A stretch of DNA of 12,204 nt from an uncultured Bacteroidota bacterium (GTDB lineage: Bacteria; Bacteroidota; Bacteroidia; Bacteroidales; SZUA-534), in assembly GCA_937885735.1 (NCBI GenBank), contig CALABN010000189.1, forward strand, positions 1 to 12,204, in the 5' to 3' direction. The position numbers were made by a program, and so were the translations under genes. The notes beneath the pieces are model-generated. The model was not told the DNA's origin, ran no database searches, and was given only the letters and a program-made list of their open reading frames with translations. Shown here one piece after another: positions 1 to 12,204 of the stretch (position 1 is its first letter; the number at the start of each line of letters is the position of its first letter).

Positions 1-921
1 ATTTTGAACAGGTGGTTCATCTTTTACTATTTTCATAGTAAGACTTCCATTTAAGTCAGATCTTTCAGCTATAGTACCTTCTGTAATTTCAAAAGATACA
101 AATTTTACAACATCATTATAAGTATTTACAGAAAGATTATTTTTAGCTTTAAATTTAAAAGTTAAAATATTTTCTGTAGTTATTTTATTTTTTAAATCTA
201 TTTTTGTTATTTCATAATTTAAATCTTTATTATGAAAGTTACAATTTGGACAATGCGATTTACCAATATGATGATAAAAAACATAATCATAAACTAATTT
301 TTCATAACAATTTGGACAAATTTTTATATCTTGCAATATAGGATTTTTTAAAGATTCTTTATAAACTTTAGATTTTAATCCAAAATAAATCTTTTCATTA
401 CTTTTTCCTAACATACTACTAATTAAATCATCACCATTCAATATTAGTTTTGTATTATTAGGAATACCTTCATTTATTCTATTAAAGACATAATCTGTAT
501 GACCATTTCTAGACATCGTATCTTGAGATAAATTAGTTACAATTAGATAATCAGGTTTTATTTTGGATAATATTTTTTTAGTACTTAATTCATCAAATTC
601 TAATACTGCGACATCTGCTTTGGATTTATTAAATACATTTACACATTTAATTAAAGCTTTAGCTATTCCAGGACTTAAATTTGCCCCTTCAGTATTAGAT
701 GATACTCTATATCCATTATATTTTAAAACATCAACAATAAGATTAGATGTCGTTGTTTTACCATTTGTACCAGTAATAGCTATAACTATCTTAGGTTTTT
801 TTACATGTTCTAAAAAATTATTATCTATTTTTAATGCTAACAGACCACATCTGTCGCTATTTTCTTTTCTACCTTTAATAAAATAATAGAATTTACTCAA
901 CCATAAACTTAATAAAAACAT
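1..921 (-). CDS. murT: MurT-type lipid II isoglutaminyl synthase subunit, partial (C-terminus outside window)
   Basis: The minus frame is open from an ATG at 921 to the window edge, giving 307 residues. Seen in it: a Mur-ligase ATP loop TGTNGKTTT near residues 50-58, an acidic EFDELS segment near 108, TNLSQDTMSRNG near 129-140, and two CPNC pairs (Cys 202, 205, 224, 227). Two such pairs around an aromatic stretch are the zinc ribbon that marks MurT among Mur ligases. In known systems MurT pairs with the glutaminase GatD and amidates the D-Glu of lipid II in Gram-positive cell walls. GatD would be expected beyond base 1. The start is supported by GGTGA (926-930) four bases upstream. The DNA is far more AT-rich than the rest of the window and avoids G/C at third positions, and MurT is not expected in Bacteroidales. 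It therefore probably belongs to another organism. Family call fairly sure; the DUF1727 part is only partly visible. Confidence 0.85.
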   Translation of the reverse strand, partial: MFLLSLWLSKFYYFIKGRKENSDRCGLLALKIDNNFLEHVKKPKIVIAITGTNGKTTTSNLIVDVLKYNGYRVSSNTEGANLSPGIAKALIKCVNVFNKSKADVAVLEFDELSTKKILSKIKPDYLIVTNLSQDTMSRNGHTDYVFNRINEGIPNNTKLILNGDDLISSMLGKSNEKIYFGLKSKVYKESLKNPILQDIKICPNCYEKLVYDYVFYHHIGKSHCPNCNFHNKDLNYEITKIDLKNKITTENILTFKFKAKNNLSVNTYNDVVKFVSFEITEGTIAERSDLNGSLTMKIVKDEPPVQN

Positions 922-925
922 AAAA

Positions 926-930
926 TCACC
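926..930 (-). promoter_or_regulatory. Shine-Dalgarno site of the murT-like gene
   Basis: Read on the minus strand this is GGTGA, four bases before the ATG at 921. The plus-strand site at 1019-1031 has the same layout (AGGTGA, four bases, ATG). The Bacteroidales genes in the window mostly lack such sites. Confidence 0.6.
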
Positions 931-984
931 ATTTTTATTATACCATTTTTTTTTAAATTCATCTATGCCATTATTGTATTTTAA

Positions 985-1013
985 TTTACTTATAAAAATA
1001 TTAATGTTATAAT
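985..1013 (+). promoter_or_regulatory. Sigma-70-type promoter in the AT-rich segment
   Basis: TTTACT (985-990) and a perfect TATAAT (1008-1013) are separated by 17 bases, the classical housekeeping spacing. It points away from murT toward the AGGTGA-ATG at 1019-1031. Its style is unlike the TAnnTTTG boxes in the rest of the window. In DNA this AT-rich, chance matches are common. Confidence 0.45.
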
Positions 1014-1029
1014 ATTATAGGTGATAAAA

Positions 1030-1046
1030 TGACAATTATATATTTT
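1030..1046. other. Composition and lineage breakpoint
   Basis: Left of here the DNA is very AT-rich, with Gram-positive-type signals and a MurT. Right of here a Bacteroidetes -7 box (1046-1053) leads into a DUF151 gene of ordinary Bacteroidales composition. The exact join cannot be placed, because both sides are AT-rich here. No insertion-sequence end, tRNA or att-like repeat is visible at the break. Confidence 0.6.
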
Positions 1047-1053
1047 ATATTTG
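1046..1053 (+). promoter_or_regulatory. Bacteroidetes -7 promoter element for the bifunctional nuclease gene
   Basis: The box TATATTTG matches TAnnTTTG exactly. It lies 20 bases before the ATG at 1074, giving a predicted start of transcription near 1060 and a short leader. No TTTG-like -33 element is seen 19-21 bases upstream. That fits either weak conservation or a join just upstream. Confidence 0.5.
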
Positions 1054-1073
1054 CTCAAATGATATAGCAAACA

Positions 1074-1682
1074 ATGTCAAAGGTCAAGTTAAAGGTATTG
1101 GGACTTTCTTACAGCCAGACACAGTCAGGGGCTTACGCGTTGGTGCTGTCTGAAGAAGACGGCAACAGACGCATTCCAATCATCATTGGCGGATTTGAGG
1201 CTCAGGCAATTGCCATCGAACTTGAAGGGTTGAAACCGCCCCGTCCGTTGACTCACGACCTGTTTGTGAACTTCAGCACCGCTTTCGGCATTTCAATTGT
1301 GGAAATCAACATTCACCATCTGGAAGACGGCATTTTCTACTCCGAACTTGTTTGCAACAACAACGGCACGTGCGTTAAGATTGATGCCCGCACATCGGAT
1401 GCAGTGGCTCTTGCCATTCGTTGCGGATGCCCCATCTACACCACCGAAACCATTATGGCAAAGGCTGGCGTGGTGTTCAATGCCGAAGACACCCCTGAAG
1501 AAAAAAAGGAACGGAAACCTGCCGAAGCCGTTTCCAGCGCATCGCCCGACACTAAATACAACAATTTGAAACTGAAGGAACTGAAAGAGCTTCTGCACAA
1601 GTCAATTTCAAACGAAGACTATGAAGAGGCCTCGCATCTGCGCGATGAGATTCAACGCCGTGAAGAGGCTGGCGAAGTTTGA
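1074..1682 (+). CDS. Bifunctional nuclease family protein (DUF151) with C-terminal UVR motif
   Basis: 202 residues. The N-terminal two thirds match the DUF151/bifunctional nuclease fold as found in Bacteroidales: IPIIIGGFEAQAIA near 35-48, LEGLKPPRPLTHDL at 50-63 and DARTSDAVALAIR at 104-116. A charged, Pro/Ala-rich linker (about 138-162) leads to a UvrB/UvrC-like helical motif (about 165-197), seen as LKELLHKSISNEDYEEA then LRDEIQRRE. Family members studied in other organisms have RNase and DNase activity; the UVR motif suggests contact with a nucleic-acid or protein partner. The cellular role in Bacteroidales is not settled. The ATG at 1074 is chosen because it follows the -7 box at 1046-1053 and starts at the conserved KVKLKVLG segment. 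A terminator follows directly, so the gene is probably monocistronic. Confidence 0.9.
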   Translation: MSKVKLKVLGLSYSQTQSGAYALVLSEEDGNRRIPIIIGGFEAQAIAIELEGLKPPRPLTHDLFVNFSTAFGISIVEINIHHLEDGIFYSELVCNNNGTCVKIDARTSDAVALAIRCGCPIYTTETIMAKAGVVFNAEDTPEEKKERKPAEAVSSASPDTKYNNLKLKELKELLHKSISNEDYEEASHLRDEIQRREEAGEV

Positions 1683-1714
1683 CAACACAACAACTACCTA
1701 CTTATATGAAAAGC

Positions 1715-1747
1715 AAAAGCGCCACAGACGATGTCTGCGGTGCTTTT
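1715..1747 (+). terminator. Rho-independent terminator of the bifunctional nuclease gene
   Basis: The arms 1715-1729 and 1733-1747 pair over 15 positions, with one G-T pair, one A-C mismatch and a three-base loop. The distal arm ends in TTTT. It begins 32 bases after the stop codon. The A-run on the other side means it could also work leftward. Confidence 0.8.
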
Positions 1748-1757
1748 GTCATTTTAT

Positions 1758-1812
1758 CGCTTCGCTGTTTAGAAGTTGAGTGCACTAGTACCTAGAACCT
1801 AGTGCCTAGTAA
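1758..1812 (+). repeat. Dispersed intergenic repeat, copy A
   Basis: Two blocks recur at 8951-9037. The first is CGCTTCGCTGTTTAGA followed by a GTTGAG-like end (1758-1780). The second is a 33-base block (1780-1812) containing the inverted repeat CACTAG-N10-CTAGTG (1783-1788 and 1799-1804). In copy B the arms and spacing are identical while the bases between them differ, as if the paired arms are conserved. In copy A the blocks abut; in copy B they are about 31 bases apart. Confidence 0.7.
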
Positions 1813-1932
1813 TTGTGAATTGATTTTTAGATGTTTGTCTGGATTTTATTTTGATTTCGAGCATCTTTGATGCGATCCTTTATAAATGCTTTTCAAAAGC
1901 GAGGTACTCGAGCGTATTTTTAATAAGGATTT

Positions 1933-2010
1933 TAGTTTTGTATTTTCCTTTGTGACTAAAATCTCAAACCATAATCATCAATAAAATGCGCAACAGTTCG
2001 TTGCTTTTTT
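1933..2010 (+). ncRNA. Possible short transcript between a -7 box and a terminator-like hairpin
   Basis: TAGTTTTG (1933-1940) matches TAnnTTTG. About 50 bases downstream GCAAC-AGTTC-GTTGC (1990-2004) is followed by six T (2005-2010). Together they could produce an RNA of about 60-65 bases. No -33 element is seen, and the box overlaps the left arm of an inverted repeat (1928-1936/1955-1963), so this is only a candidate. Confidence 0.2.
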
Positions 2011-2141
2011 ATGGCATCTTTTTGGGATCGCCCTGCGGGCTCGAAATCTCAACAAAAATCTTTTACCAGTCTGCTTACGAAACTTATGCCAATTATCCAC
2101 TTATCTATTCTGAATTGTGAATTGAAAAATCCCCAATTCAA

Positions 2142-3005
2142 TTACTTAATCTTATCAAATCCCTCGCCATATACGCTCATAACGGCCTCTTGTGATATGA
2201 ATGCCGACGGGTCTATCTTCTTGACGATCTTGTGCACTTCCTGAACCTGCGTTTTCTTGACAATCGAAACTATCACTTTTACAGGTTGTTTTGAATACCA
2301 GCCCTGCCCGTCAAGAATGGTGACGCCACGGTCGAGCTGGCTCGTAATGGCATCGGCTATCTCTGCATAATGCTTTGAGAATATCATCATCTGAACAGAT
2401 TGCTTGCGTCCAACAAGCACAATGTCAATGCAATACGTGAGCGTAAACATTGCCACAAAGCCGTAGACCATTTTCTCCAAACTGCCAAAAATGAAATATG
2501 ACGATGCCACAACCAACGCATCGCAAATCATTATCACACGGCCAGGCATAACATCGTGGTACTTGTTGATAATCATTGCAATAATGTCGGTTCCGCCTGT
2601 GCTTCCGCCCTGCGTAAACACAATGCCAATGCCCAAACCGCCAATGGCACCGCCTATCACGGTGGCCATAAACGCCTCATTGACAATTGGCTCGGTTATA
2701 ACCAAACGCAGTATCCTGACAAAAAGCGTAATCACCAGGATGCTGTAAATGGTCTTGACACCAAACGCCGTTCCCAATATCTTGACCGCCAGCACAAGTA
2801 ATACAATGTTGATGCCTATGTAGGAATATTCAACAGGGAATCCCGTTGCATAGAATATGGCCGACGCCATACCCGCAACTCCTCCACTGACAACCTGTGC
2901 GGGCAAGATAAACGACGCCCACCCCAACGAGTAGATGAACAGACCTACGGTCATTATGGCGTAAGCCTTGATTGTTTCTGTAACTGTGGACTGCATTTTC
3001 ATCAT
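2142..3005 (-). CDS. YitT family membrane protein (DUF161 plus C-terminal DUF2179)
   Basis: 287 residues, the usual size for this family. The first 200 hold about six hydrophobic segments (roughly 13-34, 62-80, 84-104, 112-131, 155-175, 178-197). They include the family signature TQGGSTGGTDIIAMII at 131-146, with VVSGGVAGMA at 38-47. The soluble tail (about 215-280: LDRGVTILDGQGWY, then VIVSIVKK) is a DUF2179 domain, a PII/ACT-like fold that may bind a small ligand. It should sit in the inner membrane; the transported or sensed substrate is not known. The ATG at 3005 is preceded by GGAGG (minus strand, 3011-3015) and a TAnnTTTG promoter. ATGs at 3002 and 2996 are alternatives. The stop is followed by an inverted repeat (2118-2140) that lacks a T-run. 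Confidence 0.9.
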   Translation of the reverse strand: MMKMQSTVTETIKAYAIMTVGLFIYSLGWASFILPAQVVSGGVAGMASAIFYATGFPVEYSYIGINIVLLVLAVKILGTAFGVKTIYSILVITLFVRILRLVITEPIVNEAFMATVIGGAIGGLGIGIVFTQGGSTGGTDIIAMIINKYHDVMPGRVIMICDALVVASSYFIFGSLEKMVYGFVAMFTLTYCIDIVLVGRKQSVQMMIFSKHYAEIADAITSQLDRGVTILDGQGWYSKQPVKVIVSIVKKTQVQEVHKIVKKIDPSAFISQEAVMSVYGEGFDKIK

Positions 3006-3010
3006 AACTG

Positions 3011-3057
3011 CCTCCGTTTTTCACAAATTTATGGCAGAAATTGGTAGGGTGTGCAAT
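3011..3057 (-). promoter_or_regulatory. Promoter and ribosome binding site of the yitT-like gene
   Basis: On the minus strand TAAATTTG (3031 down to 3024) matches TAnnTTTG. ATTG (3057-3054) lies 22 bases upstream and resembles the -33 TTTG. GGAGG (3015-3011) is five bases before the ATG, a Shine-Dalgarno site stronger than at most genes here. Confidence 0.6.
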
Positions 3058-3078
3058 TAATCGTTCCTATTTCAATTT

Positions 3079-3300
3079 TTGAATAATATATATGTGCTGT
3101 TTTTCACACCATTGCAAGATGACGTTGAGCAATTCACAAAATTCGCCCAAGAACACCCTGAACTGCACTTTATGGTCACCGCAATTGGTTGCGGATTGGC
3201 TGGCTTTGACCCGGAAGACATTGCTCCGCTTTTTACAAATGCATCTGAATTGGACAATGTCTGGCTTCCTGAATGTTTTTGGGATTCGATAAATGACTGA
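3079..3300 (+). pseudogene. C-terminal remnant of an A1S_2505-like (phage-associated) protein
   Basis: A 73-codon frame starts at TTG. Its sequence (FAQEHPELHFMVTAIGCGLAGF, shown here only as landmarks around residues 22-43, then DIAPLF and LPECFW) resembles the C-terminal end of a widespread family seen in phages and Bacteroidetes. From memory those proteins begin with an FGSN-LAGRHG-type segment. That N-terminal part, most of the domain, is absent. The sequence upstream of 3079 is instead the yitT promoter, and the stretch between YVL and the DVEQF helix looks shortened. No SD site or clear promoter precedes it. It is most likely a decayed fragment left by insertion or deletion. A short expressed protein is possible but less likely. 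Confidence 0.6.
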
Positions 3301-3343
3301 TTAACACCGTTTATTGGCACAACAAGAACGTTAACGCAAGGAT

Positions 3344-4609
3344 TTACGGTTTCAGCATATTGATTGGCACTACGTAAATGCCGTCTTCCCTTTGATATGA
3401 GCCACCTACAGCCGTAAGCACCATTAAAAAACTTGGGGTTCTTTCTTCACTCTTCTCTTTAATTTTGTTGAAGAGATTCTTGAGAGACTTAGCTCCTTCC
3501 TCTATATTGCTGTCACCACCTAACTTTATCTCAATGGCACCCCACCTTCCGTCTTCAAGATGAAGCACGGCATCACATTCCAAACCTGCATTGTCGCGAT
3601 AATGCGTAAGCGTCCCGCCTATATGATTGGCATATACAGAAAGGTCGCGCACAGCAAAATCCTCAAAAAACAAGCCAAAACTTTCCAAATCGTGCATTAA
3701 GTCTTCCGGCTCAATGCCCAATGCCCTGCACGCTATTGATGTGTCGATGAAATGACGGGTGGGCGTGCTTCTAATAGAAGTCTTCGACCTGATGCTTGGA
3801 TTCCACGCCGGCAAATCCTCTATGATATACAAATCCTTAAGCGCTTCCATATAGTCGTCAAAAGTCTTTGGGTCCATAGTGCGTTCGTTGCTCTGCCTTA
3901 CATCAGCAATAATTGTGGAAATGGATGCTTCTGTTGATATATTACGGGCATAACTCTTCACAATCATTCTCAAAACCTCGGGCTTCTTGTTTCTAAACCT
4001 CTCATTTTCACAGTCTTCAAACACAAAAAGTCCATTGAAATAGTTCTTGGTCACTTCTATGGCAATATCCTTGGTTGCCATAACTGAAATTGGCCAACCA
4101 CCCCGGCACATCAGGAATGCCACATCGTCCAATGAAAATTCCGTATTCATTCCCCAAGAGAAATGTTCACCTCCTTCAAATAAATCTTCTAAGGAAACCT
4201 TTCCTTGCGATTCCTTTGACTCCCATAAACTCATTGGACGCATTTTTACAGGTGTGATTCTTCCTGCCCCGCTGTGATGCACTTCAGTCTTGTCGGCTGG
4301 CGTGGAACTGCCCGTCAGGATATACTTGCCAAACTGATACTCATTGTCAAGGTCGTCTTTTATCTGGTTCCAAATGTCTGGTGCTTTCTGCCATTCATCT
4401 ATCAGTCTTGGCTTTTCTCCGTTCAACACCGATTTTGGATTCATTCTTGCCATTGCTATCGCTTGTTTTGTATTCAGTTTGACGAAACTTTTCTGATAAA
4501 GCATACAAGTTGTCGTCTTTCCGCAAAATTTTGGACCTGTAACAACAATAGCCCCTGAAGTCTTCATTTTACGGTCAACTTCCTTTTCAATAAGCCTTTG
4601 GTAATACAT
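3344..4609 (-). CDS. AAA-type ATPase with DUF4143 / PD-(D/E)XK-like C-terminus
   Basis: 421 residues from the ATG at 4609. Seen: Walker A GPKFCGKTTT near 25-34, acidic Walker B-like RLIDEWQ at 68-74, LTGSST at 98-103, and HHSGAGRITPVKMRPMSL near 111-128. These are hallmarks of the ATPase family that carries a DUF4143 tail. The tail (about 205-365) contains ECDAVLH followed by AIEIKLGG (D346, E360, K362), which looks like a PD-(D/E)XK nuclease-type core. The cellular role of these proteins is unknown; they are scattered accessory genes in Bacteroidetes. A longer frame starts at TTG 4630, but that TTG lies inside the -7 box, so the ATG at 4609 is the better start. The gene sits between leuS and the yitT-like gene, with its own promoter. 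Confidence 0.85.
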   Translation of the reverse strand: MYYQRLIEKEVDRKMKTSGAIVVTGPKFCGKTTTCMLYQKSFVKLNTKQAIAMARMNPKSVLNGEKPRLIDEWQKAPDIWNQIKDDLDNEYQFGKYILTGSSTPADKTEVHHSGAGRITPVKMRPMSLWESKESQGKVSLEDLFEGGEHFSWGMNTEFSLDDVAFLMCRGGWPISVMATKDIAIEVTKNYFNGLFVFEDCENERFRNKKPEVLRMIVKSYARNISTEASISTIIADVRQSNERTMDPKTFDDYMEALKDLYIIEDLPAWNPSIRSKTSIRSTPTRHFIDTSIACRALGIEPEDLMHDLESFGLFFEDFAVRDLSVYANHIGGTLTHYRDNAGLECDAVLHLEDGRWGAIEIKLGGDSNIEEGAKSLKNLFNKIKEKSEERTPSFLMVLTAVGGSYQREDGIYVVPINMLKP

Positions 4610-4627
4610 AATGGTTTGTTTTACTTG

Positions 4628-4659
4628 CAAAAGTAAACAATATTCCTAAAATTTTCAAT
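4628..4659 (-). promoter_or_regulatory. Promoter of the DUF4143 ATPase gene
   Basis: On the minus strand TACTTTTG (4635-4628) matches TAnnTTTG. ATTG (4659-4656) lies exactly 20 bases upstream, the preferred -33 spacing. Predicted transcription start is near 4621, leaving a leader of about 12 bases to the ATG at 4609. The -33 element falls inside the first unit of a 23-base tandem repeat. Confidence 0.65.
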
Positions 4660-4706
4660 ATACAATTCCCAAGATTTTCAATTCAAAATTCCCAAGATTT
4701 TCAATT
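4651..4706. repeat. 23-base tandem repeat, about 2.4 copies
   Basis: Units at 4651-4673 and 4674-4696 share ATTTTCAAT at the start and AATTCCCAAG at the end; 4697-4706 starts a third. Mismatches lie only in the middle of the unit. The period is constant at 23 bases. The array sits directly upstream of the ATPase promoter and overlaps its -33 region. Confidence 0.8.
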
Positions 4707-4758
4707 TTTACATTTGCCACAGTCTCTGCTTAAGGTTATTACAGAGATACACACAACA

Positions 4759-4789
4759 AAAAAGCCACCCCGAACCGAGGTGGCTTTTT
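4759..4789 (-). terminator. Rho-independent terminator of leuS
   Basis: A perfect 11-base stem (4759-4769 with 4779-4789) has a GC-rich core GCCACC/GGTGGC and a 9-base loop. Read on the minus strand it ends in a run of six T and begins 23 bases after the leuS stop. A T-run on the plus side makes it symmetrical, so it may also stop rightward transcripts. Confidence 0.85.
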
Positions 4790-4812
4790 GCTGTATATCA
4801 AAACGTCATTGT

Positions 4813-7635
4813 CTATAACACGATATTGATAATCTTGTTTGGGACAACAATCACCTTCTTTGGTGTCTTGCCCTCGAGCCACTTGCTGGCAAGTTCGTGA
4901 GACATTGCAACCTCCTGAATCTGTTGCGGTGTCGAACCTGCTGGCATCTCAATTGAGAAACGTGTCTTGCCGTTGAACGAAACAGGATAAGTGACGGTGT
5001 TCTCTACCAGATACTCCTCTACAAATGCAGGCCATTTGGCATCGCAAACCGAAGTGTCGTGGCCAAGTATATGATAAAGTTCTTCAGCCATAAATGGGCA
5101 GAATGGCGCCAAAAGAACAACAAGTTGCTCCTTGACCTCACGCGCTGTCGACTTGAGTTTGGTGAGTTCGTTAAGGCAAACCATAAATGCCGAAACACTG
5201 GTGTTGTATGAGAACTGCTCAATGTCGGAAGTGACCTTCTTGATAAGGGTGTGAAGTGTCTTCAGTTCGTCCTTTGACGGCTTGTTGTCGGTTGTTTCAG
5301 TGTCAACCATATAGTTCCAGAGTTTTTTCAGGAAACGGTGGCAACCGTCGATGCCGTTGGTGTCCCAAGGCTTGCTCTGCTCAACAGGACCAAGGAACAT
5401 CTCGTACAGACGCAAGGTGTCGGCGCCAAACTTGTCGACAATCATATCTGGATTCACCACGTTGAACATTGACTTCGACATCTTCTCTATAGCCCAACCG
5501 CACACATACTTGCCGTTTTCAAGGATGAACTCCGCATTGTTGTATTCAGGTCGCCAAGCCTTGAAAGCCTCAACGTCAAGCACATCGGCGCTTACTATGT
5601 TCACATCGACGTGGATTGGCGTTGTCTCATATTGGTCCTTCAATCCAAGGCTGACAAACGTGTTGGTGTCCTTGATACGATATACAAAGTTGCTTCGGCC
5701 CTGAATCATACCTTGATTGATAAGTTTTTGGAATGGCTCCTCCTTGACACTCACACCGTAATCAAACAGGAACTTGTTCCAGAAACGCGAGTAGATAAGG
5801 TGACCCGTTGCGTGCTCTGTACCACCGACATACAAATCGACATTCTGCCAATAGTTGGCGCACTCATTCGAAAGCAAAGCCTTGTTGTTGTGAGGGTCCA
5901 TATAGCGCAGATAGTAAGCCGACGAGCCGGCAAATCCAGGCATTGTATATAGTTCGATAGGGAATACCGAAACATTGTCAATCTTGCTGTTTTCCACAAT
6001 CTTGCGGTTCTTTTCGTCCCAGGCCCATACAGTGGCGTTGCCCAATGGTGGCTCGCCTGTCTCTGTAGGCAGGAATTTCTCAACCTGTGGCAGTTGTATT
6101 GGCAGGCAATCTTCAGGAATCATCTGTGGGATGCCGTTCTTGTAATAAACAGGGAATGGCTCGCCCCAATAGCGCTGACGGCTGAAAATGGCGTCACGCA
6201 GACGGTAGTTGACCTTGATTCGACCAAGGTTGTGCTCCTTTACATATTTCTTTGTGGCTGAAATGGCCTCCTTGATTGTCAATCCATTAAGAGAGAAATC
6301 GATATACGGTTTGACGCCTTCGCGAGGTGAATTTATAACGATGCCTTCCTTTGCATCGTAACTCTCGTTGCTGACGTCGGCACCCTCGATAAGCGGAATG
6401 ATAGGCAGGTTGAAATGCTTTGCAAATGCGTAGTCGCGCGAGTCGTGGGCAGGAACGGCCATAATTGCACCCGTTCCGTAGCCTGCAAGCACGTATTCCG
6501 AAATCCAGATTGGGTTTTTCTCGCCAGTAAATGGATTGATGGCGTAACTACCCGAGAAAACGCCCGTCACCTTATGGTCAATCATACGGTCGCGCTCCGT
6601 ACGGCCCTTTACGTATGCAATGTATTCATCTACAGCCTTTTTCTGGTCGGCGGTGGTAACCTTTGCAACAAGTTCGCTTTCAGGTGCAAGCACCATAAAC
6701 GTTACACCGAACATAGTGTCGGCACGTGTTGTGAATATTGTGAAATGCTCGTCGGTGCCAGCAATCTGGAACTCGACTTCAGTACCCTCGCTACGGCCAA
6801 TCCAGTTGCGCTGTGTCTCCTTGATGGAATCGCTCCACTGAATGGTTTCAAGGCCGTCGAGCAGACGCTGTGCGTATGCGCTCACACGCAGGCACCATTG
6901 GCGCATCTTTTTCTGTTCAACAGGATATCCTCCACGAACGCTGACTCCTTCAACAACCTCGTCGTTGGCAAGCACGGTGCCGAGTTTTGGACACCAGTTT
7001 ACCATTGTCTCGCCAAGGAATGCTATGCGGTAGTTCATCAGCACGTCAGACTTTTTCTTGTCGTCGAACGACTTCCACTCCTGTGCAGTGAAATTGAGTT
7101 GCTCTGATTGTGCGACATCGATATTGGCACTGCCTTCCTTTTCAAAATGCTCAATGAGTTTCTCGATAGGCTGTGCCTTTTGGCACTTGTTGCAGAAGAA
7201 CGAGTTGTACATCTTCTGGAAAGCCCACTGTGTCCAATGGTAATAGTCAGGGGCGCAAGTGCGGACCTCGCGGTCCCAATCGAAACAGAATCCAATCTTG
7301 TCGAGTTGCTCACGGTAGCGGTTGATGTTTGCCACGGTAGTCACCTCTGGATGCTGTCCAGTCTGGATTGCGTATTGTTCTGCTGGCAAGCCATAGGCAT
7401 CGTAGCCCATAGGGTTGAGCACGTTGAAGCCTTGCAGACGCTTGAAACGGGCGTATATGTCGCTTGCAATGTATCCGAGCGGGTGACCTACGTGCAATCC
7501 TGCTCCCGAAGGATAAGGAAACATATTCAGCACATAGTATTTTGGACGGCTGGCATCTTCCGAGACCTTGTATGTCTGGTTCTCGACCCAAGCCTTATGC
7601 CACTTTTGTTCAATCTCTCTAAAATTGTATTCCAT
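4813..7635 (-). CDS. leuS: Leucyl-tRNA synthetase
   Basis: 940 residues, class I synthetase charging tRNA-Leu in the cytoplasm. HVGH (the HIGH motif) is at 48-51 after [10 protein letters not shown], and KMSKS is at 718-722. Between them lies the CP1 editing domain, with TTRADTMFG and the [18 protein letters not shown] segment that holds the editing-site aspartate. The C-terminus has the tRNA-binding helical domain and a short terminal domain ending in IINIVL. An insertion at about 147-207, starting with [14 protein letters not shown], separates the usual zinc-1 region into two parts. Only one WCPK half-site (213-216) remains near the usual place, without the usual second Cys pair. From memory this arrangement is normal for Bacteroidetes LeuRS. 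The ATG at 7635 gives the conserved [12 protein letters not shown] start. It has its own promoter and terminator. Confidence 0.98.
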
Positions 7636-7658
7636 ATATCTGGTTTTTTAACGAACGG

Positions 7659-7666
7659 CAAAAATA
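7659..7666 (-). promoter_or_regulatory. -7 promoter element of leuS
   Basis: TATTTTTG on the minus strand (7666-7659) matches TAnnTTTG, 23 bases before the ATG. No clear TTTG is found at the -33 position. Confidence 0.5.
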
Positions 7667-7776
7667 ATAAAATTTGGGTGTAAAAGATTAAACGCTTCGC
7701 AGTTGTAAGTTGAAGAGTGAAAAAGAGAAAAATGCAAGATGCAAATAGTAGATTGATAATGCCTGCAACACAAAAA

Positions 7777-7802
7777 AGGCAACAGACCGTAGCCCATTGC
7801 CT
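7777..7802 (-). terminator. Rho-independent terminator of pheS
   Basis: On the minus strand AGGCAA (7802-7797) pairs with TTGCCT (7782-7777) around a 14-base loop, followed by a run of T (7777-7772). It lies about 30 bases after the pheS stop. Flanking CAACA and TGTTG can extend the pairing. The stem is short but position and T-run are right. Confidence 0.65.
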
Positions 7803-7832
7803 AATTATTTTGTTGGTGAAAAATCCTAAATG

Positions 7833-8870
7833 CTAGTATGCCGACTTGAATTGCTTCAGGAAGCGGATATCGTTCTCGAAGTACAGACGCAAGTCGCGGA
7901 CTTGGTATTTGAGCATTGCTATGCGCTCAACACCCATGCCAAATGCAAAGCCTGTGTATTTTTCGCTGTCGATGCCACAATTCTTCAGAACGTTAGGGTC
8001 AACCATTCCGCAACCCAAAATTTCCAGCCAGCCTGTTCCCTTGCAGACGTTGCAACCCTTGCCACCGCATATTGAGCACGAAACGTCCATCTCGGCCGAT
8101 GGCTCGGTGAATGGGAAATATGAAGGACGAAGACGGATCTTGGTGTCGGGACCGAACATCTCCTTTGCAAAGTACAAAAGAGTCTGCTTAAGGTCGGCAA
8201 ACGATACATTCTCTGCCACATACAAACCCTCAACCTGATGGAAGATGCAGTGTGCGCGGGCTGAAATGGCCTCGTTGCGGAACACACGTCCAGGGAATAT
8301 CATGCGGATAGGTGGCTGTGAGTTCTCCATGATGCGCGACTGCACGCTCGATGTGTGGGTACGCAACAATATGTCGTGAGGATTAGGCTCGCTTGACGCC
8401 TTCTCTACAAAGAAAGTGTCCTGCATGTCACGGGCAGGGTGCTCAACAGGGAAGTTCATGGCAGAGAAAACGTGCCAGTCGTCTTCCACTTCAGGCCCTT
8501 CAGCCACGGTGAATCCTATGCGGTTGAAAATCTCAACTATTTCGTTCTTGACAAGTGATATTGGGTGACGTGTTCCAACTTCAAAAGCCTCGCCTGGACG
8601 GGTCAAATCGTGCTTGCAGTCGTCGGATACAATGTTTTCAAGTGCCGACAAAGTCTCGTCGTACTTTTGCTGTGCCAATTGCTTCAACTTGTTGATTTCA
8701 GCGCCAACCTGCTTCTTCATTTCGGCAGGGACAGTGCGGAATTCATCGAAAAGTTGTCCTATTTCGCCCTTCTTGCTAAGGAATTTCAAACGGAATTGTT
8801 CAAGGCTTTCAGCCGAATCGGCTTTATATTGTTGAACTTTGTCAACCAGTTCCTTTATCTTGTCTAACAT
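7833..8870 (-). CDS. pheS: Phenylalanyl-tRNA synthetase alpha subunit
   Basis: 345 residues, class II synthetase subunit that works with PheT as an alpha2-beta2 complex to charge tRNA-Phe. An N-terminal coiled coil (about 1-85) is followed by the catalytic core. Seen in it: EGPEVEDDWHVFSAMNFPVEHPARDMQDTF region at 124-153, motif 2 PGRVFRNE at 193-200 with FHQVEGL at 210-216, and motif 3 FGMGVERIAML at 310-320. GFAFG (307-311) holds the alanine equivalent to E. coli Ala294, which shapes the Phe pocket. Cys 265, 268, 273 and 276 (CSIC, then CNVC) form a zinc-ribbon-like cluster absent from E. coli PheS; I recall it as common in Bacteroidetes. pheT is not in the window, so the two subunit genes are unlinked here. 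The start at 8870 fits the -7 box at 8894-8901. Confidence 0.97.
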   Translation of the reverse strand: MLDKIKELVDKVQQYKADSAESLEQFRLKFLSKKGEIGQLFDEFRTVPAEMKKQVGAEINKLKQLAQQKYDETLSALENIVSDDCKHDLTRPGEAFEVGTRHPISLVKNEIVEIFNRIGFTVAEGPEVEDDWHVFSAMNFPVEHPARDMQDTFFVEKASSEPNPHDILLRTHTSSVQSRIMENSQPPIRMIFPGRVFRNEAISARAHCIFHQVEGLYVAENVSFADLKQTLLYFAKEMFGPDTKIRLRPSYFPFTEPSAEMDVSCSICGGKGCNVCKGTGWLEILGCGMVDPNVLKNCGIDSEKYTGFAFGMGVERIAMLKYQVRDLRLYFENDIRFLKQFKSAY

Positions 8871-8893
8871 AGTGCTTATGTTTTTTGTGGGTG

Positions 8894-8924
8894 CAAAGGT
8901 ATTTATTTTTTAATAAAGTTGAAA
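8894..8924 (-). promoter_or_regulatory. Promoter of pheS
   Basis: TACCTTTG on the minus strand (8901-8894) matches TAnnTTTG. TTTC (8924-8921) lies 19 bases upstream as an imperfect -33 TTTG. The leader would be about 16 bases. No leader peptide rich in Phe codons is visible, so a classical Phe attenuator is not supported. Confidence 0.6.
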
Positions 8925-8950
8925 GTTGAATAAAAGTCGAGAGGGCGAGA

Positions 8951-9080
8951 CGCTTCGCTGTTTAGAGGTTGAGTTATTGGTAAAGTTTAAGGTTGGGATT
9001 TTTAGTGCACTAGCTCCTGGTGTCTAGTGCCTGGTAAGGTTGATCCCGATATTTGTCGGGAACTTCGTTGTTTAGAGGTT
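8951..9080 (+). repeat. Dispersed intergenic repeat, copy B with a partial copy C
   Basis: CGCTTCGCTGTTTAGA with GTTGAG (8951-8973) and the 33-base block with CACTAG-N10-CTAGTG (9005-9037; arms 9008-9013 and 9024-9029) match copy A at 1758-1812. A third partial head, ACTTCGTTGTTTAGAGGTT (9062-9080), follows directly. Between them lies the hairpin TCCCGA-TATTTG-TCGGGA (9044-9061). Confidence 0.7.
9044..9061. repeat. Small perfect hairpin TCCCGA...TCGGGA
   Basis: A 6-base stem with a 6-base loop (9050-9055), no T-run after it. I recall similar CCCGA/TCGGG palindromes in intergenic DNA of Bacteroidetes, but this cannot be verified here. Confidence 0.55.
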
Positions 9081-9084
9081 AGTC

Positions 9085-9153
9085 ATTGTTAATTATTAAT
9101 TGTTAACTGTTAATTGATTCCCCCTTATGCCTTTTACCCCTAATTGTTAATTG
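9085..9153. repeat. AT-rich degenerate repeats of ATTGTTAATTG
   Basis: ATTGTTAATT recurs around 9085-9094, 9099-9117 (with one variant) and 9143-9153. With the pheS promoter and repeat copy B, this makes up the 308-base gap between pheS and the next gene. No gene is seen in this gap. Confidence 0.55.
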
Positions 9154-9178
9154 AACAAATCCTAATTCCTAAATGAAA

Positions 9179-9595
9179 TCAGCAGTATTTTCTTTCAATG
9201 ATTGTTGAATAGATTATTGCCTCGCGGGCATCGAATTTTGGTTTTTCTTCAGGTGTGAGTTTTTCTGTTTCCTCTTGGTCATCAACTATGATGGCCTTTT
9301 CGCCTTCGGCAAATGTCTCTATTTCTGATTTTGGTTCCTGACGCTCTACATTTTGGGCAGTTGGTTCTGGCTGAGGCCTTGGTTCCTCCGAATGCTGGCC
9401 AAAAAACAAATCAGCCATTGGTCTTTTCTCATTTTCTTCCATGTCAAGCAGAAAATCGCGCAAGTTGCTGTGCTCAATAGGTGCTTCTACTTTTCTGTTT
9501 TTTTGCTGTGTTTTTGCGCTTTTGCCGAAAAGTCTGGAAAGGACGAAGATTGCAACGGGTATCAAATACACCAATATGTCCATTAGATTGTCCAT
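9179..9595 (-). CDS. Small membrane-anchored protein with conserved C-terminal tail (unknown function)
   Basis: 138 residues from the ATG at 9595. One hydrophobic helix (about 4-20: LMDILVYLIPVAIFVLS) is followed by a basic patch, then a long acidic, Pro/Glu/Gln-rich and probably disordered region (about 32-118). A short ordered tail FDAREAIIYSTIIERKY ends the protein (121-137). Bacteroidales contain a family of such proteins ending in a similar FDLRKAVIYSEIL-RKY-type tail, as I recall; no function is known to me. The frame is open upstream to 9706, but that part overlaps the preceding gene and lacks its features. The ATG at 9595 lies four bases after the stop of the gene at 9600-9998, so the two are translated as an operon. 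Confidence 0.75.
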   Translation of the reverse strand: MDNLMDILVYLIPVAIFVLSRLFGKSAKTQQKNRKVEAPIEHSNLRDFLLDMEENEKRPMADLFFGQHSEEPRPQPEPTAQNVERQEPKSEIETFAEGEKAIIVDDQEETEKLTPEEKPKFDAREAIIYSTIIERKYC

Positions 9596-9599
9596 AACC

Positions 9600-9998
9600 T
9601 TATTTTTTTTGTGCCAACGGGCATTTGGAGCTACGTCGTTCGTGGTAGTAAAGTTGGCCGTGAGTGAAAAACCTATGAATTGTTGCACACCAAATGCTGT
9701 GGTCACCGTTGAATCGGCTTGCCTTACACCGTGAATACATCATGCGCCTGCGTGTCTTGGAATCCTGAATCTTGTAGGTATGCTTTACAGTAAGTTTTGA
9801 TGCCTTGTGGTTTTCACGGGCTATCTGTTGCTCCATTTTATAATTCTCGACATTCTGCTTGAATGTCTCAATATCCACCTTGATGTTCCGTTTTTTGATT
9901 TCAGTTTGATTGTCAAAAAGATACTGATATTGTGCAACGGATGTCATAGGCACCGCCATCAACGATAAAAACAATATCTTTGCAATCAAATTTTTCAT
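9600..9998 (-). CDS. Small exported basic protein (unknown function)
   Basis: 132 residues. The N-terminus is a clear Sec signal peptide: MKNLIAK, a hydrophobic core to about 20, and likely cleavage in SVA-Q (22/23), a common Bacteroidetes pattern. The mature part begins with QYQYLFDNQTEIKKRNIK and a helical Lys/Glu-rich stretch (about 35-75). It then becomes very basic, with KTRRRMM, Cys/His residues and YYHERRSSK near the end. I do not recognise the family. It is the first gene of a two-gene operon with the membrane protein at 9179-9595. Its ATG is only 6 bases from the ATG of the divergent lipoprotein gene. The C-terminal 40 residues are less convincing as coding sequence than the rest, though the tight coupling to the next ATG supports the stop position. 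Confidence 0.7.
   Translation of the reverse strand: MKNLIAKILFLSLMAVPMTSVAQYQYLFDNQTEIKKRNIKVDIETFKQNVENYKMEQQIARENHKASKLTVKHTYKIQDSKTRRRMMYSRCKASRFNGDHSIWCATIHRFFTHGQLYYHERRSSKCPLAQKK
9975..9982 (+). promoter_or_regulatory. -7 promoter element of the lipoprotein-folK operon
   Basis: TATCTTTG matches TAnnTTTG and predicts transcription from about 9989, 16 bases before the ATG at 10005. It lies inside the signal-peptide codons of the divergent gene. No TTTG is seen 19-21 bases upstream. Confidence 0.5.
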
Positions 9999-10004
9999 TC
10001 AACA

Positions 10005-10454
10005 ATGATGAAACAAAGTTCAAAGGTACTCACTTTTTGCTGTATTATAACAATTTTGCTGATTTTTCCCACTTGCGCCAATCCGTACGACGATGTTGTA
10101 CCTTGGGTTGAAGTGAGGGTCCGTGTGAATACCTTGAGCGCTGAAAATATTGATTTACAAAGTATAAGTGGTCGTGCCATAGTAAAGGACGTGGGCTACG
10201 GTGACAACGGAATCATCATTTACAGGGCATCGGAATCGATATTCAACGCCTTCGACTGCACCTGCACCTACGAGGTGAGCGACACTTGCGGAGTGGTGTT
10301 CGACGAGAACAACGTGGCAGGCGCCATCTGTCCTTGCTGTGGCTCAAAATATGAATTGATGAACTGCGGAATGCCTACATCAGGCAAGGCGCGCTATTCG
10401 CTTAAGAGCTACCGCGTCTCGTATGCCGATCCTTATCTCATTATCAGAAATTGA
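10005..10454 (+). CDS. Rieske-like lipoprotein with Cys in place of the His ligands
   Basis: 149 residues. A hydrophobic N-terminus ends in FPTC (Cys24) followed by ANPYDD, consistent with lipoprotein signal peptidase cleavage and an envelope location. The rest has a Rieske-like layout. Box 1 is FDCTCTYE (Cys 85, 87) where C-x-H is usual, and box 2 is CPCCGSKYEL (109-118), strikingly like the usual CPCHGS-F but with Cys112 for His. PTSGKARYSLKSYRV (124-138) matches the proline-loop and closing strand of Rieske folds. Four Cys could bind zinc or an iron-sulfur cluster of the Cys4 type; which one cannot be told. I believe similar proteins occur in other Bacteroidales. The stop TGA (10452-10454) is one base before the folK ATG, so the two are co-translated. 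An alternative start is the ATG at 10008. Confidence 0.8.
   Translation: MMKQSSKVLTFCCIITILLIFPTCANPYDDVVPWVEVRVRVNTLSAENIDLQSISGRAIVKDVGYGDNGIIIYRASESIFNAFDCTCTYEVSDTCGVVFDENNVAGAICPCCGSKYELMNCGMPTSGKARYSLKSYRVSYADPYLIIRN
10021..10054 (-). promoter_or_regulatory. Promoter of the exported-protein operon
   Basis: TACCTTTG on the minus strand (10028-10021) matches TAnnTTTG. ATTG (10054-10051) lies 22 bases upstream as a -33-like element. Predicted start is near 10014, about 15 bases before the ATG at 9998. The promoter lies within the signal-peptide codons of the divergent lipoprotein gene. Confidence 0.55.
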
Positions 10455-10455
10455 C

Positions 10456-10911
10456 ATGTCGTTGGTTTACTTGTGCTTGGGTGGAAATGTCGGTGACACG
10501 CAGAAGTATCTCGACAAGTCGATAGCCGAAATAGGGCGACGGATAGGTGCGGTTTGCAGTCAATCGGCTGTATATGAGACCGAACCGTGGGGCTTTACGG
10601 CCGAACAAATGTTCCTGAACCAGGTTGTCGCTGTGCGCACGGAGCTTGAACCGCATGCCATCCTGTTAGAATGCCAGCAGATAGAAAAAGAGTTGGGACG
10701 TGTAAGGCACGGCAAGGGCTACGAATCGAGGTGCATCGACATTGACATTGTATTCATCGATTCGCAGACAATAGACACTGACGACCTTAAGGTACCCCAC
10801 CCGCTGATGCACAAGCGCCTTTTTGTGCTTAACCCAATGTGCGACATTGCACCCGACTTTGTGCATCCCGTCCTCGGAAAGACTATGAGGGAACTGAAAG
10901 ACTTATTGTAA
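10456..10911 (+). CDS. folK: 2-amino-4-hydroxy-6-hydroxymethyldihydropteridine pyrophosphokinase (HPPK)
   Basis: 151 residues. The enzyme transfers pyrophosphate from ATP to 6-hydroxymethyl-7,8-dihydropterin in folate synthesis. Seen: GGNVGD at 9-14 (GSNLGD in most), YETEPWGF at 40-47, FLNQVV at 53-58, GRVRHGKGYESR at 81-92 and IDIDIVF at 94-100. D95 and D97 are the magnesium ligands, and R82 and R92 fall on E. coli numbering. VPHPLMHKRLFVLNPM lies at 113-128. All active-site features are present. The frame is open upstream to an ATG at 10423, but that one overlaps the preceding gene; the ATG at 10456, giving MSLVYLCLGGN, fits the family. It is the second gene of an operon with the Rieske-like lipoprotein. 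No strong terminator follows; only an AAAAAATTTTTT palindrome (about 10935-10946) is seen. Confidence 0.96.
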   Translation: MSLVYLCLGGNVGDTQKYLDKSIAEIGRRIGAVCSQSAVYETEPWGFTAEQMFLNQVVAVRTELEPHAILLECQQIEKELGRVRHGKGYESRCIDIDIVFIDSQTIDTDDLKVPHPLMHKRLFVLNPMCDIAPDFVHPVLGKTMRELKDLL

Positions 10912-10974
10912 CTTCTGTAAATTCCCCTATTCAAAAAATTTTTTCAAATATGAATTGACCTTTAATCTTTTGCG

Positions 10975-10990
10975 TACTTTTGTATTTTTG
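10975..10990 (+). promoter_or_regulatory. Two overlapping -7-like boxes downstream of folK
   Basis: TACTTTTG (10975-10982) and TATTTTTG (10983-10990) both match TAnnTTTG. A TTG at 10955-10957 lies 17 bases before the first, a little closer than the preferred 19-21. They could start a transcript through the structured region toward glnS. Confidence 0.4.
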
Positions 10991-11161
10991 TCGTCATATT
11001 GTTGACTTTCACTCAGTCACAGTGCCAGTACTGTCCTTCGTTCAAAACATCAATCTACCTTACAAAATCTTCAAAATCACCACAAAGCAATTTATAGAAG
11101 TCACCTTATGCGAAATTTAGAATCCATTCATGGTTCGCACCGCTCACTATCAACCACTCTG

Positions 11162-11228
11162 CCTGTCATACGAATCCAATTACAAATTTTCTGGGATTAA
11201 ACCAGGATGTAAAGAAATTGGATACAGG
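11162..11228 (+). other. Nested RNA hairpin in the glnS upstream region
   Basis: CCTGT (11162-11166) pairs with ACAGG (11224-11228). ATCCAATT (11174-11181) pairs perfectly with AATTGGAT (11216-11223). CTGG (11191-11194) pairs with CCAG (11202-11205). The three stems are nested in order. On the 3' side the outer two abut without unpaired bases. A second ATTGGATAC at 11268-11276 could compete for ATCCAAT. Confidence 0.45.
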
Positions 11229-11412
11229 TGGACGTTGTTACGGATTTTCAATTCGTCCTTGCGCCATATTGGATACTGACAAATAGCCAAAAATCATCTG
11301 ACTTAAGTTTAACCCATAGATTAATGATGCCAACAAATCAACTGTTGCTGACTATGGTTATTACGTATTTGTAATTCTTTGTCCTACCTATATCTATCTA
11401 TCAACTATTTTC

Positions 11413-11420
11413 TACTTTTG
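11413..11420 (+). promoter_or_regulatory. -7 promoter element of glnS
   Basis: TACTTTTG matches TAnnTTTG and predicts a start near 11427, about 27 bases before the ATG at 11454. A TTTG at 11378-11381 is 31 bases upstream of the box, too far for a standard -33. Confidence 0.5.
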
Positions 11421-11453
11421 CAATCGTAATTTTTACAAACACATATTATACAT

Positions 11454-12204
<751 letters not shown>

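What the first reader, a model, noticed from the sequence alone, without database searches (positions are those of the whole stretch)
1020..1073. Sharp join between low-GC Gram-positive DNA and Bacteroidales DNA
Seen: an abrupt change from very AT-rich DNA to moderate composition. SD-dependent starts (GGTGA/AGGTGA four bases from ATG, twice) occur left of the break, and TAnnTTTG promoters right of it. The left gene is MurT-like, with both CPNC pairs; MurT/GatD amidation is known from Gram-positive cell walls and is not expected in Bacteroidales. No mobile-element end is visible. Inference: most likely an assembly chimera; otherwise a very recent transfer of a cell-wall gene.
Basis: partly seen in the sequence, partly recalled or inferred. 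Interest (0 to 1): 0.7.

Follow-up and report, generated by a model that had tools for sequence, protein, structure and literature searches.

The report
Chimeric end of a metagenome contig
The first thousand bases of this DNA piece come from a different kind of bacterium than the rest and were most likely joined to it by an assembly or library mistake, so the odd gene neighbourhood is an artefact rather than biology.

Summary
The break is real. Bases 1-1035 are 22% GC DNA with a MurT-like gene; the rest is 45% GC Bacteroidales DNA. The window appears to be a whole contig (12204 bp), so the foreign part is a contig end.

The join lies at about 1035/1036, not 1020-1073. Bases 1036-1064, with the TAnnTTTG box, match the DUF151 leader of close relatives; upstream of 1036 the match stops. 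In 12 of 14 loci read from the nearest family (20 genomes), rplU-rpmA-serS lies there instead. MurT_C is over its cut-off in 0 of 198 sampled Bacteroidales. Both left starts have Shine-Dalgarno sites and no TAnnTTTG box; 7 of 9 right starts have the box.

Two unrelated joins within about 1 kb of a contig end point to a chimera rather than a working transfer.

Verdict: artefact, most likely an assembly or library chimera (0.9). No reads were available, so spanning coverage was not tested; a natural transfer stays possible at about 5%.

The parts
1..168 (-). Unidentified coding tail (residues 252-307 of the open frame), not MurT; a second join lies at about bases 100-185
   Evidence: -0.8 bits to a MurT profile, against 54-60 bits for the same stretch of 10 of 10 held-out relatives; not a frameshift, open in 5 of 5000 shuffles; no relative found
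169..921 (-). MurT-like gene, N-terminal and middle part only, low GC
   Evidence: start with GGTGA site at 926-930
922..1035 (.). Rest of the low-GC left arm, with AGGTGA at 1019-1024 and an ATG at 1029 on the + strand, cut about two codons later
   Evidence: no match to the upstream region of six Bacteroidales relatives beyond shuffles
1035..1036 (.). Main join (uncertain by a few bases)
   Evidence: local alignments with four relatives begin at 1034-1037; composition changepoint 1049-1113
1036..1073 (+). Native Bacteroidales promoter and leader of the DUF151 gene; TAnnTTTG box at 1046-1053
   Evidence: shared with 8 of 12 family loci aligned
1074..1682 (+). DUF151 (bifunctional nuclease domain) gene with UVR motif; first gene of the native Bacteroidales part
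2142..7635 (-). yitT-like gene, an AAA_14/DUF4143 gene and leuS: native context
   Evidence: yitT beside leuS in G1183 and G1459

Best explanation
The contig is an artificial join. Bases 1036-12204 are a stretch of a Bacteroidales genome, probably of the Salinivirgaceae. Bases 1-1035 are DNA of a low-GC Bacillota-type organism, presumably from the same sample, glued onto the contig end, and contain a further join at about 100-185. The sharp switch in composition, promoter style and gene content marks the join and has no biological function. Shown: two different origins, the join position, the break inside murT, and the gene order that relatives have in its place. Inferred: that the joining happened in assembly or library making rather than in a cell, and that the donor shared the sample.
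For: Different phyla by named relatives: 3 of 3 organism names among the 120 listed MurT relatives are Bacillota, 9 of 9 among the 120 listed DUF151 relatives are Bacteroidota. Native leader shared from 1036 on, nothing upstream of it. rplU-rpmA-serS lies divergently upstream in 12 of 14 family loci read. MurT_C over cut-off in 0 of 198 Bacteroidales. murT frame turns into foreign coding sequence after about residue 251. Contig end: the longest of the 11 contigs with the DUF151 protein has the window's length. Start signals differ on the two sides.
Against: No reads, so no coverage or spanning test. 2 of 14 family loci (L043, L044) also lack rplU upstream, so the order is not invariant; outside the family only 3 of 7 further Bacteroidales loci have it. 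The tail is in frame with murT, which a chance join gives only about one time in six (inference). No donor genome was found; the closest is 54% identical.
Confidence: 0.9

Rival explanations
1. A recent natural transfer: low-GC Bacillota DNA was inserted upstream of the DUF151 gene of a Bacteroidales cell, carrying a murT fragment that is fused to another coding sequence.
For: The tail keeps the reading frame open. Both parts of the left arm are of similar low GC, so they could come from one donor. Gene order upstream of DUF151 varies in some relatives.
Against: No integrase, transposase, tRNA or element end at the join. The murT part is broken. The leader is cut just above its promoter box. 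0 of 41 distinct DUF151 loci examined carry a MurT match (over 60 bits in 20 loci; at E 1e-4 in 21 loci), though some flanks are short. No MurT relative above 64% identity is listed, although the DUF151 protein lies in 11 contigs; but the window's own frame is not listed either, so partial frames may be missing.
Confidence: 0.06
2. The left arm is native: an AT-rich island of the same Bacteroidales genome with an unusual Mur ligase.
For: Some Bacteroidales loci have AT-rich upstream DNA (L050, 23% GC over 699 bases).
Against: MurT_C over cut-off in 0 of 198 Bacteroidales; in the 20 family genomes the MurT-like protein finds matches of at most 29.4 bits, against 326 bits in G001; left starts have Shine-Dalgarno sites and no TAnnTTTG box.
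Confidence: 0.02

Closest known systems
Chimeric contigs (interspecies misassembly or library chimeras) in metagenomes
   Same: Abrupt change of origin at a contig end, with no element boundary and with broken genes
   Different: Nothing seen that differs; reads were not available to prove it. Recalled as a known kind of error; for print I saw a search listing only
MurT of the MurT/GatD lipid II amidation complex
   Same: Mur ligase middle domain and two CPNC pairs where S. aureus MurT has its Cys4 zinc ribbon (PMC6113224, passages)
   Different: Only about residues 1-251 are MurT; the C-terminal domain and gatD are not in the contig
DUF151/BFN_dom protein of Bacteroidales
   Same: Domain plus UVR motif, leader and promoter box shared with relatives
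   Different: The upstream rplU-rpmA-serS genes of 12 of 14 family loci read are missing

Membership tests
Chimeric (misassembled) contig | Two sides of different taxonomic origin | tested here: met
Chimeric (misassembled) contig | Relatives continue differently across the join | tested here: met
   rplU-rpmA-serS in 12 of 14 family loci read; leader match stops at 1034-1037
Chimeric (misassembled) contig | No spanning reads, or a coverage step, at the join | not testable with these tools
   no reads available
Functional MurT (lipid II isoglutaminyl synthase subunit) | Mur ligase middle domain | tested here: met
Functional MurT (lipid II isoglutaminyl synthase subunit) | C-terminal domain (MurT_C) following the middle domain | tested here: not met
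   residues 252-307 score -0.8 bits to the MurT profile; the frame then runs off the contig
Functional MurT (lipid II isoglutaminyl synthase subunit) | gatD next to murT | not testable with these tools
   its usual place, after murT as in L001 and L002 (gatD by recall), lies beyond the contig end
Horizontally acquired element | Integrase, transposase, tRNA or element end at the join | tested here: not met
   only one side of any insert is in the contig

The most novel reading that the evidence does not exclude
A very recent interphylum acquisition in which a Bacteroidales cell gained low-GC Bacillota DNA carrying a fusion of the MurT middle domain with an unrelated domain, placed divergently beside its DUF151 promoter.
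Probability: 0.05. Interest if true: 0.5.

Novelty: not a real feature. Interest (0 to 1): 0.08.

Why it matters
Taken at face value, the contig would suggest lipid II amidation in Bacteroidales and an interphylum transfer. Marking it as a probable chimera keeps that error out of gene catalogues. The tests used here (limit of the native leader, displaced operon, broken reading frame) work without reads.

Tried and rejected
Frameshift in murT instead of a second join: rejected, since no other frame of bases 1-260 scores above zero with the MurT profile. Identity of the tail: it looked to me like a cohesin- or Ig-like surface domain, but only sub-threshold Pfam matches were seen (InlK_D2 E 0.038, DUF3862 E 0.068), two weak PDB matches (E 0.35 and 1.4), no NCBIfam match, none of 6 candidates at E <= 10 in the protein database and none in viral contigs; it stays unidentified. 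The same join in viral contigs: 0 exact matches of a 30-base pattern (low prior). Plasmids: no DNA match for either arm; 14 records hold MurT-like proteins, all under 60% identity. Donor: best genomes 54%; next best in 197 genomes of the order of G001 is 42%; 0 of 131 sampled Bacilli passed E 1e-60, too strict a threshold to say much. Searches from G299 and G444 (0 of 98 at E 1e-66) led away from the right family.

An imperfect palindrome at 138-169 and a loose inverted repeat between 109-124 and 987-1002 lie near the second join. I thought of hairpin-mediated chimera formation but did not test it; such repeats are common in AT-rich DNA.

A further join inside the right arm: LeuS is 75% identical to that of G1183 and 66% to G1459, but 52% to G1461, G1470 and G1389, whereas DUF151 is closest to the latter group and YitT is 87-88% identical to G1461 and G1389 and 55-58% to G1183 and G1459. 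Since yitT lies beside leuS in G1183 and G1459 and near it in G1389, I take this as replacement of leuS in one lineage; this was not tested.

Rows dropped: the MurT profile used 117 of the 120 listed proteins (length 430-480). Of the genome searches only the best loci were fetched; for the family, 14 of 20 genomes. One search printed MurT matches only above 60 bits. One search used 6 of the 12 loci.

Full report
The window and its ends. No whole genome is held for the window. The protein database lists the window's DUF151 protein (P0121, one member sequence) in 11 contigs, the longest of 12204 bp. That is the window's own length, so the window is taken to be a whole contig and base 1 a contig end. 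The MurT-like open frame (1-921, minus strand) runs off that end.

Composition. One changepoint dominates the window: best position 1066, 1049-1113 within 2 lnL units, 21.9% GC left and 44.9% right, gain 113 lnL. Third-position GC is 8.7% in the murT part and 3.7% in its tail, against 44-60% in eight right-hand genes.

Left arm. The frame matches Mur_ligase_M, and the two MurT models are its best NCBIfam hits, below their cut-offs. 1778 of 3425 candidates passed E 0.001; the highest identity among the 120 listed is 64%, and the three organism names given among them are Erysipelotrichia, Erysipelotrichaceae and Ruminococcaceae. The nearest genomes found, two MAGs titled Oscillospiraceae, are 54% identical and have 39% and 47% GC in that gene against 23% here, so they are not the donor. 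In both, murT is followed by a gene of 229 codons, which I take to be gatD by recall. The two left starts, murT at 921 (-) and an ATG at 1029 (+), have GGTGA and AGGTGA four bases upstream and no TAnnTTTG box before them.

The break inside murT. Alignment with relatives holds to about residue 251 and then fails. A profile of 117 relatives gives residues 252-307 -0.8 bits, whereas the same stretch of 10 of 10 held-out relatives gives 54-60 bits. Against a sharp limit, the full-frame alignment stretches weakly to residue 274, and single relatives end their match anywhere from base 0 to 210, most of them at 100-110 or 160-190; I place the join at about 100-185. It is not a frameshift: no other frame scores above zero, and the tail frame stays open in only 5 of 5000 shuffles, so it is probably real coding sequence. 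It has no identified relative.

Right arm. The nine organism names among the 120 listed DUF151 relatives are all Bacteroidota, six of them Salinivirgaceae. Going through sampled genomes led to a family of 20 genomes, all 20 with a DUF151 match, best 76%. Seven of nine right-arm starts have a TAnnTTTG box 26-41 bases upstream; yitT also has a GGAGG. TAnnTTTG occurs in papers on Bacteroides promoters (search listing only); its role as the promoter box is recalled.

Where the join is. In 8 of 12 family loci aligned, the DUF151 leader carries TATATATTTTTATATTTGCTCAACAG; the window has this, one T shorter and with a changed end, from 1036 on. Local alignments to L053, L042 and L052 start at 1036 or 1037 and no shuffle of 1000 reaches their scores; to L056 the start is 1034 and 3 of 1000 reach it; L062 and L060 give no significant match. 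The stretch 964-1035 scores 10-14 against the six loci, no better than shuffles, while L053 scores 24-54 with four relatives upstream of the box (no shuffle control for these). The finding's 1020-1073 is therefore mostly native leader, and the join lies about two codons into the + strand frame of the left arm.

What lies there in relatives. In 12 of 14 family loci read (of 20 genomes), rplU, rpmA and serS lie divergently upstream of DUF151, rplU starting 214-344 bases away; L043 and L044 lack them within 1.5 kb. Outside the family 3 of 7 further Bacteroidales loci (L045-L051) have rplU there. In the window these three genes give only a chance serS match of E 0.48. In 18 of 20 more distant Bacteroidota loci the upstream gene reads as etfA (name recalled from its sequence); the exceptions are L028 and L035. 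Of 41 distinct DUF151 loci none has a MurT match (over 60 bits for 20; at E 1e-4 for 21), although some flanks are short, for example 291 bases in L032 and 699 in L050.

MurT in Bacteroidales. PF08353 (MurT_C) passes its cut-off in 0 of 198 sampled Bacteroidales; one match, 23.2 bits in G1260, lies below the cut-off of 25; 2 of 14 control genomes ring. In the 20 family genomes the MurT-like protein finds only matches of at most 29.4 bits, which I take for ordinary Mur ligases, against 326 bits in G001. MurT/GatD is described from Gram-positive bacteria, with a Cys4 zinc ribbon in S. aureus MurT (PMC6113224, passages).

Coherence of the right arm. yitT and leuS are adjacent in G1183 and G1459, and L050 has DUF151, yitT and leuS in the window's order. 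LeuS is 75% identical to one part of the family and 52% to another, against the trend of DUF151 and YitT. I read this as replacement of leuS in one lineage; it was not tested.

Judgement. Two unrelated joins within 1.04 kb of a contig end, a leader cut just above its promoter box, a displaced and mostly conserved gene cluster, and a murT frame running into foreign sequence make an assembly or library chimera much the best explanation. Without reads a natural transfer remains possible at about 5%. Whether the assembler or the library was at fault cannot be told.

Noticed in passing
window 1-168 (-): The coding tail after MurT has no recognisable relative; the best Pfam match is sub-threshold (InlK_D2, E 0.038).
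   Followed up: partly
window 4813-7635 (-): LeuS is 75% identical to that of G1183 but 52% to G1461, G1470 and G1389, which are closer to the window in DUF151 (and, for G1461 and G1389, in YitT): leuS may have been replaced in one lineage of this family.
   Followed up: partly
L001 and L002, murT at 6001-7332: Two MAGs titled Oscillospiraceae carry a murT much closer to Erysipelotrichia-type copies than the rest of 197 genomes of their order do (54% against 42% or less to the window's); possibly a transfer within Bacillota or a binning error.
   Followed up: no
window 3344-4630 (-): An AAA_14/DUF4143 ATPase gene with a TTG start lies between yitT and leuS, which are neighbours in G1183 and G1459.
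   Followed up: no
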